From positions 496,001 through 560,000 of the forward strand of contig JAUIES010000001.1 of NCBI GenBank assembly GCA_030429705.1: DNA of 64,000 bases, written 5' to 3'. Below the pieces are notes generated by a model. That model saw only the letters and a list, made by a program, of their open reading frames with translations. It did no database searches and had not been told where the DNA came from. The position numbers and the translations under genes are program-made. Each line of letters starts with the position of its first letter. Positions within the stretch are counted from its first letter, which is position 1. The DNA is from Phycisphaerae bacterium. GTDB lineage: Bacteria; Planctomycetota; Phycisphaerae; Phycisphaerales; UBA1924. Below, piece after piece: positions 3,359 to 64,000 of this stretch.

Positions 3359-3451
3359 GGTTCAATACTCCCTCAGTGGCTCGCGCCATGATTCAATCGT
3401 CGGTCAATCGTCCGTTGGTCACTGAGCGACCACTCGCAACGGACTGACCCA

Positions 3452-4336
3452 TTACTTCTTTGCCCGCGCGAAGAACGACTCGATCGCTTTCTTCGCATCG
3501 GGTGTATGACGAAGGCGAATAAGGTGCTCGCGTTCACTTTCGCAGGCGGCATCCCATCCATGCTCCAAGCCCTTCGTCACCGCATCCATCACCGCTGCAG
3601 CATGGAGCGAACTCGCGGTCTCATCCGTCATTGTTCCCATCGCCACACTGACCGCCGGAGCAGTGTCCGTACGACCGATATGCCGTAGCGGAGCACCATC
3701 GCGCTGTGGCGCAGGTTGGGCACGCACCCATGCGACCGCCGCCTCGATCAGCCCGTCTGCTGTCTCTGCGGTCGCATCAAACAGTCCTTCGCCAACCGCC
3801 ATCTCGTATCCCATCGCCTGCCCGGCGCAGGTCATGCGAATCGCTTTGACCGGGTCCATCCGAGCAGGGAGCAGATTCGTCCCGCCCCATCCAGGGCAGA
3901 TACACAATCCGGCTTCAGGGAGCCCGACCGGGAAGGGTTTTCCAGATGCGGATGGTGCCCCAATCAACCCGTCGCAGTGCATTGCAAGTTCCAAGCCGCC
4001 ACCAAGGGCCGCCCCGCCTATTGCGGCCGCTGTCGGGCAAGGCAGCGCGCTGATCAGTCCGAAGACCTTCGCACCAAACTTCAAATACGCCCGAAGTTCA
4101 GCATCACCCTTGTCCACAATTGTCTTCAGATCGGCCCCGGCTACAAAAGAACGCGGCGCAGCCGACGCCAAGACCAGCCCACCCATTTCTGAAGGCAGAT
4201 TGTTCAGAGTATGTTCGAGTCGACCGATCAGTGCTTCATCAAGCACAACCACCGGGCGATCGCCCTGTTCGAGGGTCAGAATAATCACTTGGGGCTCGGT
4301 AGCAGGCCCACGAGCCTCGAGGGGGAACGGTTCCAT
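3452..4336 (-). CDS. Enoyl-CoA hydratase/isomerase family protein with both catalytic glutamates
   Basis: A crotonase-fold protein of 294 residues. The oxyanion-hole segments are SFVAGADLK and GGAALGGGLELAM, and LPEAGLCICPGWGGT follows. Both acid/base glutamates of hydratases (the E of LELAM and the E of LPEAG) are kept, so real hydratase activity is plausible. The C-terminal part is longer than in simple hydratases and recalls the N-terminal half of FadB/FadJ, without the dehydrogenase half. The ATG at 4336 is preferred over the longer reading frame because AAGGTG lies seven bases upstream. It is the third crotonase gene of the operon. Confidence 0.85.
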   Translation of the reverse strand: MEPFPLEARGPATEPQVIILTLEQGDRPVVVLDEALIGRLEHTLNNLPSEMGGLVLASAAPRSFVAGADLKTIVDKGDAELRAYLKFGAKVFGLISALPCPTAAAIGGAALGGGLELAMHCDGLIGAPSASGKPFPVGLPEAGLCICPGWGGTNLLPARMDPVKAIRMTCAGQAMGYEMAVGEGLFDATAETADGLIEAAVAWVRAQPAPQRDGAPLRHIGRTDTAPAVSVAMGTMTDETASSLHAAAVMDAVTKGLEHGWDAACESEREHLIRLRHTPDAKKAIESFFARAKK

Positions 4337-57849: not shown

Positions 57850-59367
57850 ATGATTGCACGCGTCCAGAGTTTCCTGCTCACCGGCATCGATGCTGACCCA
57901 TGTGAACTCGAGGTCGACTTTGACCCCACAGACATGGACAAGCAGCTGCTCGTTGGGTTGCCCGATGCTGCGGTGAAGGAATCGCTCGAACGCGTGCGCT
58001 CTGCACTGATGAACTCAGGATATGCCTTCCCGGTCGGTCGCACGCTGATCAATCTCGCCCCAGCCGATGTTCGCAAGGAGGGGCCGTCGTACGACCTGCC
58101 CATTGCGGTCGGATTGTTGATCGCTTCGGGCGTGATCCGGGGCGGCTCGCTCGACCCGCGCCGACTCATGTTCGCGGGCGAACTGGCGCTCGATGGACGG
58201 GTTCGGCCGATCCGCGGCGCGATTGCCATGGCGATCCTGGCCAAGGCTGAGGGGATGCGGGCGATCATCTTGCCAGCAGCCAATGCAGCCGAAGCAGCGG
58301 TCGTGCGCGGGATTGATGTCTTTGGCGTGCGCACGCTGACAGAAGTCGTCGGGCTCATGTCGGGTGAACTCGACGCTGAACCCGAGCAAGCACCCGATAT
58401 CGAGTCGATGCTGAGTCGCGCTACACCAGAAATCGATTTCGCCGATGTACGCGGCCAAGAGACCGTCAAACGCGCCATCGTGGTCGCTGCTGCTGGCTCG
58501 CACAATCTGGTCATGCTCGGGCCGGCGGGGACCGGCAAGACGATGATGGCCAAAGCCCTCCCCGGCGTGCTGCCCTCACTCACGCCCGATGAAGCGCTCG
58601 AAATCACGCGGATCTATTCGGCTGCCGGGTTGATGTCGTCCGGGCAGGGATTGATCACAACGCGCCCCGTGCGCACGCCACACCACACCGCATCGAGCCC
58701 GGCCATCGTCGGCGGGGGGGCGGTGCCCAAAGCCGGGGAGATCTCGCTGGCTCACTTCGGCGTCCTCTTCCTCGATGAACTGCCCGAGTTCCCGCGCCCC
58801 GTCCTCGAAACACTGCGTCAACCGCTCGAAGACCATGTCGTCACCATCGCGCGGGCCAGCGGGACGATTCAGTTCCCGGCCTCGTTCATGCTGGTGGCCG
58901 CGATGAACCCGACGCCCAAGGGTGATATTGCGCCCGGCGAGGTTGGCAAACGCGACATGGAGCGGTATCTGTCGCGTATCTCCGGGCCGCTGCTGGATCG
59001 GATTGATATTCATGTTGAAGCACCGGCGGTGCCGTTCAAGCAACTGCGGACCGCACCGATCGGGACGAGTACCGCCGACATGCGCGAGCAGGTGGCGGCG
59101 GCCCGGAGAGTGCAAGCCGCCCGTCAAGGGTTGATTGCGCCAAATGCCCGGCTTTCTGGCCGACAACTCGACAAGTTCGCCCCCCTCGACACCGAGGCCG
59201 AGTCACTCCTCGGTGCGGCCATGACCCAACTGGGGTTGTCAGCCCGCGCCTACGACAAGATCCGCCGCACCAGCCGCACGATTGCTGACCTCGCGGGCGA
59301 AGAAGCGATTACGACGGGGCATATCTCGGAAGCGATCAGTTACAGGTTGCTCGATCGGAAGGTTTGA
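57850..59367 (+). CDS. YifB/ComM-family Mg-chelatase-like ATPase
   Basis: A 505-residue AAA+ protein from the ATG at 57850 (the MIARVQSFLLTGIDA opening is usual for the family; an ATG at 57838 is also possible). N-terminal domain with LVGLPDAAVKESLERVRSA, then GPAGTGKTMMAKALPGVLPSL (Walker A near 225), FLDELPEF (Walker B), and AAMNPTPKGD, and the C-terminal Mg_chelatase_C with SARAYDKIRRTSRTIADLAG. ComM drives branch migration in natural transformation. Confidence 0.92.
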   Translation: MIARVQSFLLTGIDADPCELEVDFDPTDMDKQLLVGLPDAAVKESLERVRSALMNSGYAFPVGRTLINLAPADVRKEGPSYDLPIAVGLLIASGVIRGGSLDPRRLMFAGELALDGRVRPIRGAIAMAILAKAEGMRAIILPAANAAEAAVVRGIDVFGVRTLTEVVGLMSGELDAEPEQAPDIESMLSRATPEIDFADVRGQETVKRAIVVAAAGSHNLVMLGPAGTGKTMMAKALPGVLPSLTPDEALEITRIYSAAGLMSSGQGLITTRPVRTPHHTASSPAIVGGGAVPKAGEISLAHFGVLFLDELPEFPRPVLETLRQPLEDHVVTIARASGTIQFPASFMLVAAMNPTPKGDIAPGEVGKRDMERYLSRISGPLLDRIDIHVEAPAVPFKQLRTAPIGTSTADMREQVAAARRVQAARQGLIAPNARLSGRQLDKFAPLDTEAESLLGAAMTQLGLSARAYDKIRRTSRTIADLAGEEAITTGHISEAISYRLLDRKV

Positions 59368-59421
59368 ACGCGGAGATGCGGAGATCACGCGGAGGGGCGG
59401 AGAGGCACGAATGAGCCGGAT

Positions 59422-59506
59422 GGGTAGCATGGTCATGTCTTCATGGCCATGACGGGGCGGCATTGAACTTCGACCATGGCCCTGCAGAGCCAAGACCATG
59501 CCACCC
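59422..59506 (-). repeat. Dispersed palindromic element, copy C (reverse orientation)
   Basis: Plus strand starts GGGTAGCATGGTCATGTC and ends GAGCCAAGACCATGCCACCC; read on the minus strand it matches copies A and B over its length. It lies between the ComM and S74 genes. Confidence 0.8.
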
Positions 59507-59587
59507 ACTTAAGAAACACCGATCGCCAATGAGGTAGAAACCACTCAAGTCCCGCGATTGCGAGCACAATTTTAACGGTCATCTCAT

Positions 59588-60952
59588 CTAATTGTCCTCA
59601 GGCAGCAACTGTACCATAAGCGCTTCAAGCCGTTTCAATCTCATTTCCAGAATGGCGTTCTTCGCGTGCAGTTCTTTGTTGTCCGTAACAAGGACTTCAA
59701 TCTGACGATTTTTTTCTTCGCGAAGGTCGCGCATCGCTTCGACCGTGAGCGCTTCAAACCCCATGAACGAGAGTGTCTTGTAGCCATTCTCGCTCTCGCT
59801 GACCCAGTCTGGGAACACCTTTTCGACATCCTGGGCGATCATGCCAATACGCTCGCCGGGCAGTTCATGGATCGGGTCGGGGTCGATGAACTCGAACGAA
59901 ACACCGCGCAGCGACATGAGGCGGTCCAGCGATCCATCGAGCGCGACAATGTTTTTCTTGAGTCTGCGGTCGGAGAAGACCGACCACGGCCCGCCGCCGG
60001 TCTTGCACGCGGTCCCGTTCACGGTCAAACGGTGCTGGAGGAGGAAGCCCGCTGTGTTGATGCCAACATTGTTGTCCGTGATCCAAAGCATGGGTTGGCC
60101 GTCCTGGTTGGTTAGGAAGGTGTATCCGTCGTTGGGTCCGGTTGCGCGCAGGCCGAGTGTTGCGTCGATCTGCCCGTCCGTTGTGTTGCGGAGAAGCACG
60201 GCGGCATCGTTGGAGTCCCGCTCAAACAGCACCGCGTCGCCGCGCGTGTGCAGCACGCGCTCCGGGTTTTCGGTGCCGATGCCAACATCCCCGTCATCAT
60301 TGATGACCATGCGATTCTGATTCCCGTCCGTACGAAACTGAAAGCCGTTGGGCAGTGTTGGGTTGTTGTAGAGAATGCCGCCGCTGGTGCTGCTTGAAGG
60401 ACCGCCAAAGAAAATCCCACGCTCAAAGTTGTCTGGTGAGAGCAGACTCAGATAGGCGTGGTCGTCGCGTTCCAGGGTCGCCAGAGAAACTTCCTTCCCC
60501 ACGGTGCCCGACGGGCCGTCGGCAACATGGAGCAAGCTGGTTGGTGCGGTCGTGCCGATGCCGATCTTCTCATTGTCATCAACAAAAATGCCTCGAGTCT
60601 GAATCGAGTACGGCGTGCGGGTGATCTCCTGACGCGGCGTCAGTATCACGCCCTCGACTTCGATCTGAAGCCATCGCCGATCGTTGTTGAACGCCGCCAC
60701 TCCGAAATCGAGTTCGACACTGAACAGCCCATCGACAAGCTCTACATCGCTGATGTATATCGCGCTTCCGATCGCCGACCCATTCGAACGCGCATCCCAA
60801 AGAATGAACTCAAACTCACGCAACCCATTGACCGGGTCACCGTTGTTTTTGAGCTCACCCTGATAGGTAAAAGCGGAGTTAGATTGAGCGAACACCGGAG
60901 CAGTACAAACCATGCCCATGCAAAGAACGACGACAAATACGAGAGCTTTCAT
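59588..60952 (-). CDS. Exported protein with S74 tail-fibre chaperone domain
   Basis: A 454-residue secreted protein (signal peptide ends near PVFAQ). The first 130 residues are beta-rich with FTYQGELKNNGDPVNGLREFEF and PRQEITRTPYS, a common lead in such bacterial exported proteins. Repeated GIGTTAPTSLLHV/VGIGTENPERVLHT collar-like strands follow. The C-terminal ~120 residues are the S74 intramolecular chaperone: SDRRLKKNI carries the Ser-Asp dyad for self-cleavage, and EVLVTDNKELHAKNAILEMRLKRLEALM is the coiled coil. It forms a self-cleaved trimer on the surface. Confidence 0.85.
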   Translation of the reverse strand: MKALVFVVVLCMGMVCTAPVFAQSNSAFTYQGELKNNGDPVNGLREFEFILWDARSNGSAIGSAIYISDVELVDGLFSVELDFGVAAFNNDRRWLQIEVEGVILTPRQEITRTPYSIQTRGIFVDDNEKIGIGTTAPTSLLHVADGPSGTVGKEVSLATLERDDHAYLSLLSPDNFERGIFFGGPSSSTSGGILYNNPTLPNGFQFRTDGNQNRMVINDDGDVGIGTENPERVLHTRGDAVLFERDSNDAAVLLRNTTDGQIDATLGLRATGPNDGYTFLTNQDGQPMLWITDNNVGINTAGFLLQHRLTVNGTACKTGGGPWSVFSDRRLKKNIVALDGSLDRLMSLRGVSFEFIDPDPIHELPGERIGMIAQDVEKVFPDWVSESENGYKTLSFMGFEALTVEAMRDLREEKNRQIEVLVTDNKELHAKNAILEMRLKRLEALMVQLLPEDN

Positions 60953-61380
60953 AAGGGGTCCTCTCCTCTTTTGTTCCTAAACGGTTCGTTGGCCTGTCCA
61001 TTATTGATATAAGCGACACTGATGCAAGCGAAAACCCGATCCGTTCTAACTCCTCTTTCATTGCATGGACACCGTTCCCAAACCCACTCCTGGCTAACGA
61101 ACAGGCCAATGCCGGGTGCTTCTGACCTTTGGCGGGATGTACCCATGATCGACGAGTCACTCGGATGCTGTTGTATGTGCAATACATATCACGGTTCGTG
61201 TGTCGGCTCGTTGTGTTCGGTTTGCCGGCGGTATGGCGTGGGGCCCGAATGCGGTGGGGCAGCGTTGCGATTGCCTCGGTAAGAAGCCCCCAAAGCAGGT
61301 GCGTTCCGAGAAGATCAGCACTTGAAGGGGCCGGAGGCGGGTTCGGTGCAGTTGCCCGCGTGTGCGAAGGTCCGGATGCG
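60953..61380. other. Intergenic region upstream of the S74 gene and the heptad array
   Basis: About 430 bp with no supported gene. It holds the S74 gene's promoter. A loose inverted repeat, GTTGGCCTGTCC near 60985 and GAACAGGCCAATG near 61100, is visible but imperfect. Confidence 0.5.
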
Positions 61381-61788
61381 TTGAATTCTATTCCAAAAGA
61401 GGCGTCTGATGCTCTGCGCGATGCGTGTGAAACGATTTCGCATGCGTATGAAACGATTTCGCATGCGTGTGAAACTCTTTTTGACGCATCAAAAACGCTG
61501 CGCGATGCATGTGAAACGATGTGGGGCGCACCAACAACTCTTTCGCATGCGTCTCATACGCTGCGCGACGCATCAAAAACTCTTTCGAACGCATCAACAA
61601 TGGTTGCACACGCACCAAAAACGATGCGCGACGCATCATCTATTGTATTGCATGCGTCAAAAATGCTGCGCGACACGCCACATGCTCGGCGTGCTGCGTG
61701 TCGGACGAGCCCGTACGCATGTTCATCGACATATCAGGCATCGACCATCCCTGCCACGCCGCACGCGGCAATGGGCCGGGTGCCGTGA
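61381..61788 (+). CDS. Heptapeptide-repeat ORF (possible coiled-coil protein)
   Basis: A 135-codon frame from a TTG at 61381 with AAGG ten bases upstream; a start further up is possible. It consists mostly of 14 seven-residue units whose pattern is x-T-(I/L/M/V)-x-x-A-x, for example ETISHAC, KTLRDAS, KTMRDAS. Hydrophobic and Ala positions alternate by 3 and 4, as in a coiled coil. It ends inside repeat copy D. No signal peptide is seen. Frames on the other strand are also open because the period is a multiple of three, so coding is inferred only from the codon-like substitutions. Confidence 0.4.
   Translation: MNSIPKEASDALRDACETISHAYETISHACETLFDASKTLRDACETMWGAPTTLSHASHTLRDASKTLSNASTMVAHAPKTMRDASSIVLHASKMLRDTPHARRAACRTSPYACSSTYQASTIPATPHAAMGRVP
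61387..61680. repeat. 21-bp degenerate tandem array, 14 units
   Basis: Exactly 21 bases per unit with no insertions or deletions from 61387 to 61680. The best-kept bases of a unit are ACG-N-TG-CGCGA-Y-GCR-T-Y; the first unit (61387) is the most degenerate. Units contain GATGCGT/GACGCAT half-palindromes. Copies differ from each other by several bases each, so the array is old or diverged under selection. Confidence 0.9.
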
Positions 61789-61859
61789 TCATGGCCTCAT
61801 GGACATGACCGGGCAGCATTGGTCGACCATGGCCTTGCAGAGCCAAGACCATGCCACCC
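61778..61859 (-). repeat. Dispersed palindromic element, copy D (reverse orientation)
   Basis: Plus strand starts GGGTGCCGTGATCATGGCC and ends AGCCAAGACCATGCCACCC. Read in reverse it matches copies A-C. It lies directly after the tandem array and overlaps the end of its frame. Confidence 0.78.
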
Positions 61860-62018
61860 GTCTGATCTATCGATTTCGAACGAGCGGGAATATTCCGTGG
61901 ACTGAGGATCTTGGTACGCTGCGTCGGTTGACAGGCCGCAGCGTAAATCGAATAAGTGCGGGAATCGGCCCGCGTTGAACTCAAAACGAACACAGGGCAC
62001 TCGCCCAAGGAGTCAACA

Positions 62019-62777
62019 TTGTCTGAACAACTCAGCAAGATCACCGCTGACCAGTGCTCAGCACCACCAGCGAAATACGACGATCTCAAGGCACTGTTCC
62101 TCAACTGCACGCTCAACCGCACGCCGGTGCTGTCGCATACCGAGAAACTCATCGGGGTCGCTCAGCGTGTTTTTGAAGCCAATGGCGTGACGACGAAAGT
62201 CATTCGACCGGTCGATTACGAACTCGCTGCCGGGCTGGGCAAAAACATGGCGGAGACTCCTGAATGGGATCGAGACGATTGGCCCAAGTTGCAGGCTGAG
62301 GTCGATGCCTGCGACATTCTCGTGCTGTGTACATCGGTATGGCTTGGCGAAAAGTCGAGCGTGTGCAACCGCGTGCTTGAACGCATGTACGGCTACACCC
62401 ACGATTTCAACGAGAAAGGTCAGTACCGCGACTACGGCAAAGTCGGCGCGACGCTGATCACGGGCAACGAAGACGGCGTGAAGCACTGCGCGATGAACAT
62501 CCTGTTCTCGCTCAGTCATATCGGATACACCGTGCCGCCGCAGGCCGACGCGGGCTGGATGGGTGAAGCCGGCCCGGGTCCGTCCTACGCCGACCCCGGC
62601 TCGGGTGGTCCTGAGAACGACTTCACCAATCGCAACACGACCTTCCTCGCGTGGAACTGCATGCACCTGGCCCGCATGCTCAAGGATCAGGGCGGTATAC
62701 CCGGCCACGGCAATCAGCCGGACGCGTGGGAGGCGGGCTGCTGCTCGACGAACGCAAGCCCTGAGCACAAGCGGTAG
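62019..62777 (+). CDS. Flavodoxin-fold NAD(P)H-dependent FMN reductase-like protein
   Basis: A 252-residue protein from a TTG at 62019, preceded by AAGGAG at a good distance; no ATG fits and the longer frame to 61956 lacks a ribosome site. LFLNCTLNRTPVLSHTEKLI near residue 25 and ILVLCTSVWLGEKSSVCNRVLERM near 105 are FMN-phosphate and isoalloxazine-loop regions of the flavodoxin-like reductases, and GATLITGNEDGVKHCAMNIL the later strand. Substrate is unknown. Confidence 0.8.
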   Translation: MSEQLSKITADQCSAPPAKYDDLKALFLNCTLNRTPVLSHTEKLIGVAQRVFEANGVTTKVIRPVDYELAAGLGKNMAETPEWDRDDWPKLQAEVDACDILVLCTSVWLGEKSSVCNRVLERMYGYTHDFNEKGQYRDYGKVGATLITGNEDGVKHCAMNILFSLSHIGYTVPPQADAGWMGEAGPGPSYADPGSGGPENDFTNRNTTFLAWNCMHLARMLKDQGGIPGHGNQPDAWEAGCCSTNASPEHKR

Positions 62778-62866
62778 TCACCGCCGGGTCAACAGCCAAA
62801 CCGAGTTCGATTCACCGATGCCGGATTGTTCTCGCACATCATCTCGAATGGCGCATACGCTCGCCC

Positions 62867-63757
62867 ATGACGGTGCCGCGTTACGACATCCTTGCGATCG
62901 ACCTCGATGGCACGCTGCTTGGAGCGGATGGGCAAGTCTCGCCCGGCAACCGGGCTGCGGTTGAGCGGGCTCGGCGGGCGGGGATGCTGGTGCTGCCGTG
63001 TACCGGGCGCGGGCTCGTCGAGTGTCAGGAAGTGCTGGCGCAGTTCGACCACACCGGGCCGGTGGTTGTTGCCGGGGGGGCGATGATTTGTGACGGCTCG
63101 ACGGGTCAAACGCTACACCGGTTTGGGGTGAATCGACACATCGTCGCGGCCTCGACCGCGTTCATCCACGATGCCGGGCACGCGGCTCTGGTACTCAAAG
63201 ACCGCACCGAAACCGGACACGACTATCTCGTCGTCACCAGCGAGAGCGATCATCCCGTCGACCCGGTGTCGCTGTGGTGGTTCGAGGAGTTCAACCTGAC
63301 CACCCGGTTTGTGCGCTCGCTCGAAGACGACGAGCACCCCGACTCGACCGTGCGTGTGGGGCTGGTTGCCGATAGTCGTGATTCGGTGCCACTGGTTGAC
63401 CGCATGAAGGCGGAACTGGGACCGGAGGTCCTGCTGCATTCTTTCCCAGCCCTTATCGCCGACGAGCACAGCAAGTCGGGTGACCGTGAGGTCCACATAC
63501 TCGAAGTCTTCGACAAGCAAGCGCACAAATGGGGCGCGATCGAGTGGGTGGCTCAGCGGCAGGCACTGCTCGGGACACGCGTCGCGGCGATCGGAGACCA
63601 TGTCAACGACCTCACCATGCTTGAGCGGTCCGCCCTGGGCATTGCCATGGGAAACGCTGTTCCAGAAGCAATGGAAGTATCTGATGTGACCACACGCCGT
63701 AACATCGACGATGGCGTGGCGCACGCCATCGATCAGATCCTCGATGGCGTGTGGTAA
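62867..63757 (+). CDS. HAD superfamily phosphatase, Cof type
   Basis: A 296-residue hydrolase. ILAIDLDGTLLGADG has the nucleophile and acid Asp pair (Asp12, Asp14), AVERARRAGMLVLPCTGR the Thr/Ser motif, KWGAIEWVA the Lys, and VAAIGDHVNDLTMLERSALGIAMGNA the metal-binding end. The C2B-type cap lies between. Cof-type enzymes remove phosphate from sugars or nucleotides. Its stop is 13 bp before rsmA. Confidence 0.9.
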   Translation: MTVPRYDILAIDLDGTLLGADGQVSPGNRAAVERARRAGMLVLPCTGRGLVECQEVLAQFDHTGPVVVAGGAMICDGSTGQTLHRFGVNRHIVAASTAFIHDAGHAALVLKDRTETGHDYLVVTSESDHPVDPVSLWWFEEFNLTTRFVRSLEDDEHPDSTVRVGLVADSRDSVPLVDRMKAELGPEVLLHSFPALIADEHSKSGDREVHILEVFDKQAHKWGAIEWVAQRQALLGTRVAAIGDHVNDLTMLERSALGIAMGNAVPEAMEVSDVTTRRNIDDGVAHAIDQILDGVW

Positions 63758-63770
63758 TGGAGTGTGGTCT

Positions 63771-64000
63771 GTGCAGACACTGAGCGAGATACGAACGCTG
63801 CTCAACGAGCGAGGGCTTCGGCCGAGGCGTTCACTCGGGCAGAACTTTCTGGTTGACCACAACCTGCTCAAACAACTGGTCGACGCATCGGGTGCCGGCG
63901 ACAACGACCTGGTGCTCGAGGTCGGGCCGGGGACCGGAACCATGACCGAGGAGATCCTCGATCGTGGGTGCCGCGTCATAGCCTGCGAACTCGATACCGA
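63771..64000 (+). CDS. rsmA: 16S rRNA dimethyladenosine transferase RsmA/KsgA (partial, 5' part)
   Basis: The first 76 residues are in the window. From the GTG at 63771 (GGAG eight bases upstream) they read VQTLSEIRTLLNERGL, RRSLGQNFLVDHNLL, and LVLEVGPGTGTMTEEIL, the SAM-binding Rossmann motif, then VIACELDT. The LGQNFL stretch near residue 22 is the RsmA/KsgA signature. It dimethylates two adenines in helix 45 of 16S rRNA. The gene continues past the right edge. Confidence 0.93.
   Translation, partial: MQTLSEIRTLLNERGLRPRRSLGQNFLVDHNLLKQLVDASGAGDNDLVLEVGPGTGTMTEEILDRGCRVIACELDT

What the first reader, a model, noticed from the sequence alone, without database searches (positions are those of the whole stretch)
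61387..61680. A phased 21-bp tandem array whose variation looks like coding for a heptapeptide coiled coil
Fourteen units of exactly 21 bases run without any indel. In the plus frame starting at 61387 the third positions vary most (ACG/ACT, GAC/GAT, GCA/GCG, TCA/TCT), the third codon always encodes I, L, M or V (one unit has P), and the sixth codon is nearly always Ala. This gives x-T-hydrophobic-x-x-A-x, an a/d heptad. Such patterns suggest selection on protein, although no start with a strong ribosome site or a signal peptide is evident and other frames are open too. It may be a new repeat protein or a DNA-level repeat that is read by a binding protein (units carry GATGCGT/GACGCAT).
Basis: partly seen in the sequence, partly recalled or inferred. 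Interest (0 to 1): 0.75.

Follow-up and report, generated by a model that had tools for sequence, protein, structure and literature searches.

The report
Non-coding 21-bp palindromic intergenic array
The tandem array is real but shows no sign of encoding a repeat protein: it belongs to a set of short DNA arrays scattered between the genes of this bacterium, all with units of exactly 21 bases (two turns of the double helix) but with different sequences, whose purpose is unknown and may be to dock a protein along one face of the DNA.

Summary
The array is real: 14 ungapped 21-bp units at 61387-61680, fading out by about 61743. Its variation is not protein-like. Over 14 arrays of this kind no frame shows an excess of synonymous change (Fisher p 0.995; four pooled pairs 0.84); antisense does nearly as well because the unit is nearly palindromic. 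A paralogue on another contig shares its leader. Sampling a quarter of the genome, plus relatives, shows a class: arrays of exactly 21 bp with unrelated units in five genomes and one named record of Phycisphaerales-like planctomycetes; only the arrays of this genome, G232 and G164 look clearly intergenic. Four types were found at two loci each. In one pair identity falls steadily from the leader outward; in the window's pair only slightly. Units are more palindromic than real 21-mers (9 of 14 arrays; p 3.5e-8, one per type). Inferred function: leader-anchored dyad sites, phased at two helical turns, docking a dimeric DNA-binding protein. A drifting or mobile 21-bp satellite is almost as likely.

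The parts
61288..61386 (+). leader shared with the paralogous array on contig C7; no gap in the alignment
   Evidence: MAFFT and BLAST against L011 minus strand
61298..61316 (+). leader block 1, identical in both paralogues (19 of 19)
   Evidence: alignment
61364..61408 (+). leader block 2 running into the first unit; 2 of 45 bases differ between paralogues
   Evidence: alignment
61387..61680 (+). 14 ungapped 21-bp units; the first (61387-61407) is a boundary unit; palindromic core AYGCRT in 10 of the 13 others
61681..61743 (+). three degenerate units where the array fades out
60953..61955 (.). intergenic region (by ORF list) that holds leader and array, between a Peptidase_S74 gene (minus) and an FMN reductase gene (plus)

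Best explanation
The feature is a non-coding DNA element: a leader of about 100 bp followed by a tandem array of 21-bp units. It belongs to a class of such elements dispersed through intergenic regions of this genome, with like arrays in some relatives. What recurs across the class is the exact period of 21 bp (two turns of B-DNA) and, in most arrays, the dyad symmetry of the unit, not the unit's sequence (shown). Inferred: each unit presents a dyad-symmetric, often degenerate, site on the same face of the helix; a dimeric DNA-binding protein nucleates at the leader and the proximal units and fills the array cooperatively, acting locally on chromosome architecture or neighbouring promoters. 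Indels are not seen because one base would turn a site about 34 degrees off the line. The coding-like look of this array arises because the variable Y and R of AYGCRT happen to fall on wobble positions of one frame on each strand.
For: Paralogue with shared leader at G000:C7:536879-537419. More arrays of exactly 21 bp in the same genome: C4:205.9k and C4:1325.1k; L059, L064, L074, L075, L098; C5:354.1k. In relatives: G232, G012 and G326, G164, and the named Phycisphaeraceae record L161. Palindromy above real 21-mers of the same genome (for A5, of a genome of the same genus): 9 of 14 arrays at p 0.02 or less; Fisher 3.5e-8 for one array per type, ten arrays; 7 of 14 at p below 0.02 by column permutation. 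439 parsimony substitutions and no indel inside the ungapped arrays; beside 10 arrays checked no off-phase stretch scores as high as the weakest unit. In the 23 of 27 type I units that keep A-GC-T, AYGCRT is never ACGCGT (10 C/A, 9 T/G, 4 T/A; p 0.0016); the boundary unit of the paralogue, not among the 27, does have it. Identity between paired arrays is highest at the leader. No coding signal.
Against: No binding protein, transcript or phenotype is known. Changes are not more unevenly spread over the 21 columns than random (Fisher p 0.42; weak clustering of conserved columns, p 0.03), so selection on a core is not shown. Five arrays (A3, A4, A5, A8, A13), all among the seven more uniform ones, are not significantly palindromic. 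Arrays are not conserved between species by sequence: none at E 0.001 in 162 other family genomes, one weak hit in 300 other genomes of the order sample, none in 198 others of the phylum sample. Like arrays are scarce farther out: one locus in 1.26 Mb around ftsK of 80 named records, none in 200 kb of G467 or in 100 kb each of G065 and G161. The absence of indels is partly built in, because arrays were found at a fixed lag.
Confidence: 0.42

Rival explanations
1. A neutral or mobile satellite. A copying process with a natural step near 21 bp (slippage or template switching over two helical turns) makes the arrays, they spread now and then with their leader, and the units then drift. The period reflects the mechanism, not a function.
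For: Arrays come and go between species. They fade at the outer end. Lag 42 or 63 exceeds lag 21 in the five arrays measured, a sign of multi-unit duplication. Substitutions are spread over columns as if random (p 0.42). Five of the seven more uniform arrays are not palindromic. An inverted terminal unit in the array at C4:205.9k points to template switching. Satellite families scattered over one genome are known in bacteria (PMC6749651).
Against: Units diverged to about 55% mean identity in the oldest arrays would be expected to have gathered indels. Palindromy in all seven more diverged arrays is unexplained. The same period in unrelated sequences across genera asks for an unusually exact copying step.
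Confidence: 0.4
2. A gene for a heptad-repeat (coiled-coil-like) protein, read in the plus frame at 61387, perhaps from the TTG at 61381 to the stop at 61786-61788.
For: Frame open over 219 codons. Codon 3 hydrophobic in 13 of 14 and codon 6 Ala in 13 of 14. Types II and IV also read as heptads with hydrophobic positions. The same frame is open in the paralogue.
Against: No synonymous excess in any of 14 arrays or four pooled pairs. The antisense frame does nearly as well. The paralogous frame has a different end and lies antisense over parts of two genes. A stop lies inside the L074 array in its partner's heptad frame. Leader changes fall in blocks, not at wobble positions (by eye). No Pfam match.
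Confidence: 0.08
3. A structured RNA transcribed from the plus strand, with units pairing into long hairpins.
For: The plus strand of 61280-61720 folds better than shuffles (z -4.19; minus strand z -1.95).
Against: A palindromic tandem array is expected to fold well in any case, and each unit can pair with many others. No Rfam match in 58000-64000. No covariation test was made.
Confidence: 0.08

Closest known systems
Prokaryotic satellites (Subirana and Messeguer 2019, PMC6749651; abstract and passages read)
   Same: Tandem arrays, species-specific, mostly short; families scattered over one genome exist, such as a 14-nt family in Chloroflexus aurantiacus.
   Different: That survey reports dispersed non-coding families with long repeats (over 30 nt) only in Leptospira interrogans and Methanocella conradii, and reads multiples of 3 as a hint of coding; here several unrelated units share one period of 21 bp, show no coding signal, are mostly palindromic and have leaders.
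TAACTGA intergenic direct repeats of Beggiatoaceae, Cyanobacteria and Bacteroidetes (PMC4679880; abstract and section list seen)
   Same: Many intergenic tandem arrays per genome, proposed as binding sites of a regulator.
   Different: One fixed heptamer, mostly a few nucleotides upstream of start codons; here 21 bp, sequences differ from array to array.
REP elements, GTAG and CGTC superfamilies (PMC3733652; start of abstract and passages seen)
   Same: Palindromic, dispersed, also reported in Planctomycetes.
   Different: Single, paired or clustered stem-loops, not ungapped arrays with a constant short period.
Iterons and plasmid centromere repeats (recalled, no call)
   Same: Direct repeats of about 20 bp, helically phased, read by a DNA-binding protein.
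   Different: Here several chromosomal loci per genome; no rep or par gene was seen in the ORF list beside the window array (no dedicated search).
CRISPR arrays (recalled, no call)
   Same: Leader followed by an array, best conserved near the leader.
   Different: No spacers; units abut and diverge; no cas genes noticed beside the window array (no dedicated search).

Membership tests
protein-coding heptad repeat | excess of synonymous change in one frame | tested here: not met
   14 arrays, Fisher p 0.995; this array p 0.41; pooled pairs p 0.84
protein-coding heptad repeat | homologous frame intact in paralogues | tested here: inconclusive
   open in A1, A2, A3, A4; interrupted inside L074, the partner of L059
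protein-coding heptad repeat | transcript and translation | not testable with these tools
   no expression data held
dispersed non-coding satellite | tandem repeats of one family at several loci | tested here: met
   A1/A2, A3/A4, A6/A7, A8/A16; A9 found no second copy at E 0.01, A10 being a weak relative
phased DNA-binding-site array | constant spacing of whole helical turns | tested here: met
   21 bp in every array studied (the scan covered lags 8-74, the class is then defined by 21); no off-phase continuation beside 10 arrays
phased DNA-binding-site array | dyad-symmetric sites | tested here: met
   9 of 14 arrays at p 0.02 or less, Fisher 3.5e-8 for one per type; five arrays not symmetric
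phased DNA-binding-site array | site more conserved than spacer | tested here: inconclusive
   over-dispersion p 0.42, neighbour correlation p 0.03
phased DNA-binding-site array | a protein binds it | not testable with these tools
   no binding data
CRISPR array | constant repeats separated by unique spacers | tested here: not met
   units abut without spacers and diverge
Rfam RNA families | covariance-model match | tested here: not met
   0 matches in 58000-64000 at gathering scores

The most novel reading that the evidence does not exclude
An undescribed class of chromosomal element in Phycisphaerales: a leader plus 7-20 palindromic sites at exactly two helical turns, present at perhaps 20 or so places in this genome (six in a quarter of it) in several sequence types. 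Four types (I to IV) were found at two loci each, with weak evidence for a fifth pair. Each type would be read by its own dimeric protein that nucleates at the leader and spreads, and the paired loci could be bridged in space, giving a chromosome-folding or co-regulation code in which helical phase is selected and sequence is free to drift.
Probability: 0.25. Interest if true: 0.85.

Novelty: new variant of a known kind. Interest (0 to 1): 0.6.

Why it matters
Bacterial intergenic tandem repeats are usually explained as slippage products or as coding. A class in which unrelated sequences in several genera share one exact period of two helical turns, mostly with dyad symmetry and with leaders shared between paired loci, would point either to a selected protein-docking architecture or to a copying process with a helix-set step. 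Either would be a specific, testable addition to what shapes intergenic DNA in planctomycetes. It also warns that 'third positions vary, so it codes' fails for palindromic repeats whose period is a multiple of three.

Tried and rejected
Coding: tested per array and pooled, six frames, against column shuffles; no signal. Without correction for six frames, type I alone looks suggestive (17 of 400 shuffles reach it); with correction it does not (p 0.29).

RNA: plus-strand fold z -4.19; not pursued, since palindromic arrays should fold in any case; no Rfam family.

Conserved core by substitution counts: not significant (p 0.42). I therefore do not claim that selection on a core is shown.

Outward decay inside single arrays: strong at first, but that run included units past the end; trimmed, it is modest (Fisher 0.0003 over eight arrays; 0.0007 for A1, A3, A6, A8; 0.045 for the other four). 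A7 and A4 show no trend.

A motif common to all leaders: AAGGTCCG recurs in types I and III, but it is common in the genome. Terminal inverted repeats: exact matches of 11 or more beside 2 of 10 arrays, with different sequences; rejected. Association with Peptidase_S74 genes: two arrays (window, L075), but none was seen in the ORF list around the third locus looked at (by eye).

Short array in G189 (L013): unit of about 20 bp (20, 20, 20, 19), similar words; not counted as a member. Protein-level scan of named genomes with the array translation: 122 pattern matches, none confirmed. BLAST hits in G172, G216 and G050 were not arrays; the short hit in G298 was not looked at. L094, L097, L100 and L190 are microsatellite or heptamer-based repeats, L067 a lysine-rich coding repeat by its translation, L143 and L164 lie in open frames that look like genes; all left out of the class. 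The second array in L161 (13063-13209), the weak one in L096 (5482-5870) and the one in G164 were seen but not put into the 14-array tests. A16 was found after those tests and used only. The 14 arrays were cut to the units that looked clear to me. Coiled-coil or structure prediction was not run.

Full report
What is there. At window 61387-61680 lie 14 units of exactly 21 bp without an indel, then three degenerate units to about 61743. Mean pairwise identity of the 13 units from 61408 on is 0.57. Identity at lag 21 is 0.54 and at lags 42 and 63 0.58, against 0.31 for the best unrelated lag. The array sits in a 1-kb intergenic region between a Peptidase_S74 gene and an FMN reductase gene. The window is contig C4 of a 3.49-Mb genome in 8 contigs. 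The 80 FtsK relatives kept of 175 are 49-78% identical in their best segment and mostly labelled Phycisphaerales, Phycisphaeraceae or Planctomycetota, the first listed being labelled Cyanobacteria, so the genome is taken to be a Phycisphaerales-like planctomycete (inference).

It has relatives in the same genome. A paralogous array (A2) lies on contig C7 (L011, minus strand), 74-75% identical. The two share not only the units but an upstream leader in two blocks: 19 of 19 bases identical at 61298-61316, and 45 bases with two differences at 61364-61408, with 47 poorly conserved bases between, without a gap in the alignment. Two further arrays with another unit (A3, A4) lie at C4:205.9k and C4:1325.1k. 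A sample of 40 stretches of 20 kb from this genome together with the window (864 kb) gave 12 rows in a scan for clean periodic arrays at lags 8-74. Eight rows have period 21 or a multiple; two of these are L067, a lysine-rich coding repeat by its translation, and L100, a heptamer array, which leaves six: the window, L059 (A6), L064 (A10), L074 (A7), L075 (A8) and L098 (A9). Of the other four rows one is a GA microsatellite (L097) and three (30, 30 and 54 bp) lie in open frames and were not studied. The L075 type has a second copy on contig C5 (A16) with an almost identical leader. By ORF lists, without a gene caller, the arrays of this genome lie between genes.

It is not confined to this genome, though its sequence is. 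In relatives sampled in the same way (400 kb from four genomes) 3 of 10 rows are 21-bp arrays, two in G012 and one in G326; there is none in 100 kb each of G065 and G161. G164 gave one in 200 kb; G467, of the same class but another family, gave none in 200 kb. G232 has one between glmS and a pilin-like gene (gene names from the translations, recalled). In 1.26 Mb around ftsK of the 80 named records there are 28 rows, five with 21 or a multiple; two, both at one locus in L161, are clear arrays, L143 and L164 look like genes, and L190 is heptamer-based. For G012, G326 and L161 the arrays overlap the start of, or lie within, long open frames, so their being intergenic is not established. By sequence the array has no homologue at E 0.001 in the 162 other genomes of the family (queried with A2 at E up to 1; 151 of those genomes gave only short hits, best 0.0017), one weak hit in 300 other genomes of the order sample (G189, a 20-bp repeat), and none in 198 others of the phylum sample.

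It does not look like a gene. For 14 arrays I compared synonymous and other differences between units in six frames, with columns shuffled as control. The lowest p of any array is 0.34 and the combined p is 0.995. Pooling the pairs gives 0.84. Entropy does not follow codon position (combined p 0.93). The plus frame of this array (0.32) is matched by its antisense (0.30), because AYGCRT is its own reverse complement and puts Y and R on wobble positions on both strands. In A2 the same frame is part of a 669-codon open frame that begins antisense inside hsdM and ends antisense in the last part of a beta-lactamase-family gene. In L074 the frame that reads FHRAMEP-like heptads in its partner L059 meets a stop inside the array.

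It looks like a DNA-level repeat. Units are significantly palindromic in 9 of 14 arrays against real 21-mers of the same genome given the same noise (A5, of G232, was set against G012 of the same genus); combined p is 8.9e-11, or 3.5e-8 with one array per type. A column-permutation test gives 7 of 14 at p below 0.02. All seven arrays with mean identity of 0.67 or less are palindromic; of the seven more uniform ones (0.68 or more) A3, A4, A5, A8 and A13 are not. Within the ungapped arrays 439 substitutions are needed by parsimony, and beside 10 arrays examined no off-phase stretch reaches the score of the weakest unit. In type I, ACGCGT is not seen although both its letters are common (10 C/A, 9 T/G, 4 T/A, 0 C/G; p 0.0016; 4 of 27 units without the A-GC-T frame were dropped); the boundary unit of A2, outside the 27, has it. 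Against a strongly selected core: substitutions are spread over columns no more unevenly than random (p 0.42), with only weak clustering of conserved columns (p 0.03).

Leaders and polarity. For the A8/A16 pair, identity per 21 bp is 0.86-1.0 over the five windows before the array and then runs 0.90, 1.0, 0.90, 0.76, 0.71, 0.76, 0.62, 0.48, 0.43, 0.52, 0.33 along it. For A1/A2 it is 0.95 just before the array, 0.95, 0.86, 0.48, 0.90 in the first four units, 0.57-0.81 in the next ten, and 0.19 after that, so the fall is slight. Unit quality within arrays also tends to fall outward once end units are trimmed (Fisher 0.0003 over eight arrays; 0.0007 and 0.045 for the two halves of the pairs; A7 and A4 show no trend). 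The array at C4:205.9k carries one inverted unit at its leader end, matching the far end of its partner over 28 bases.

How it most likely works. Shown: dispersed, leader-sharing arrays of strictly 21 bp, without coding signal, mostly palindromic. Inferred: 21 bp is two helical turns, so the dyads of all units face one side of the DNA, and a dimeric protein could nucleate at the leader and cover the array. I give this 0.42. A satellite made by a helix-set copying step and then drifting is almost as likely (0.40), because nothing here shows binding and the column test is negative.

Comparison. The survey of prokaryotic satellites (PMC6749651, abstract and passages read) reports dispersed non-coding families with long repeats as rare, mentions a scattered 14-nt family in Chloroflexus, and reads periods that are multiples of three as a hint of coding; the present class goes against that hint. 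TAACTGA arrays (PMC4679880, abstract and section list seen) are the nearest published intergenic tandem arrays with a proposed binding role that I saw, but have one fixed heptamer. In the listed results of my literature searches (most of them only the top 10-20 of more papers) I saw no paper on 21-bp arrays in Phycisphaerales; the library holds open-licence papers only.

Noticed in passing
window 59420-59510 and 61777-61864; L074 13186-13267: A dispersed REP-like element of about 90 bp with inverted ATGGTCATG-type and CCATGGCC / AAGACCATGCCACC words; one copy lies just past the outer end of the array (BLAST between 61777-61864 and L074; the copy at 59420 by eye).
   Followed up: partly
L035 2880-2907 and L047 2623-2650: The first unit of the array at C4:205.9k is inverted relative to the rest and matches the far end of its partner array (96% over 28 bases), as if made by template switching.
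   Followed up: partly
L013 1465-1555 (genome G189): Short array of about four units of 20 bp (one of 19) with the words GTGAAACGATTT and GCATGC, similar to type I units but not in 21-bp phase.
   Followed up: partly
L100 7790-7872, L094 1566-1705, L190 5150-5345, L035 2698-2729: Heptamer-based tandem repeats (words such as GCAGACG, CAATGCC, GATTGCCG) in the same or related genomes.
   Followed up: no
window 60952 and L075 4058-5512: Two of the 21-bp arrays lie some 400 bp upstream of genes with a Peptidase_S74 (endosialidase chaperone) domain; none was seen beside the third array looked at (L228).
   Followed up: partly
L097 9263-9409: A 140-bp GA-rich microsatellite in this otherwise GC-rich genome.
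   Followed up: no
e.g. L228 around 3450-3560, L059 8440-8580: Another frequent inverted repeat with words such as GGTGGCAC and CGAAGACGG, probably a second REP family (by eye).
   Followed up: no
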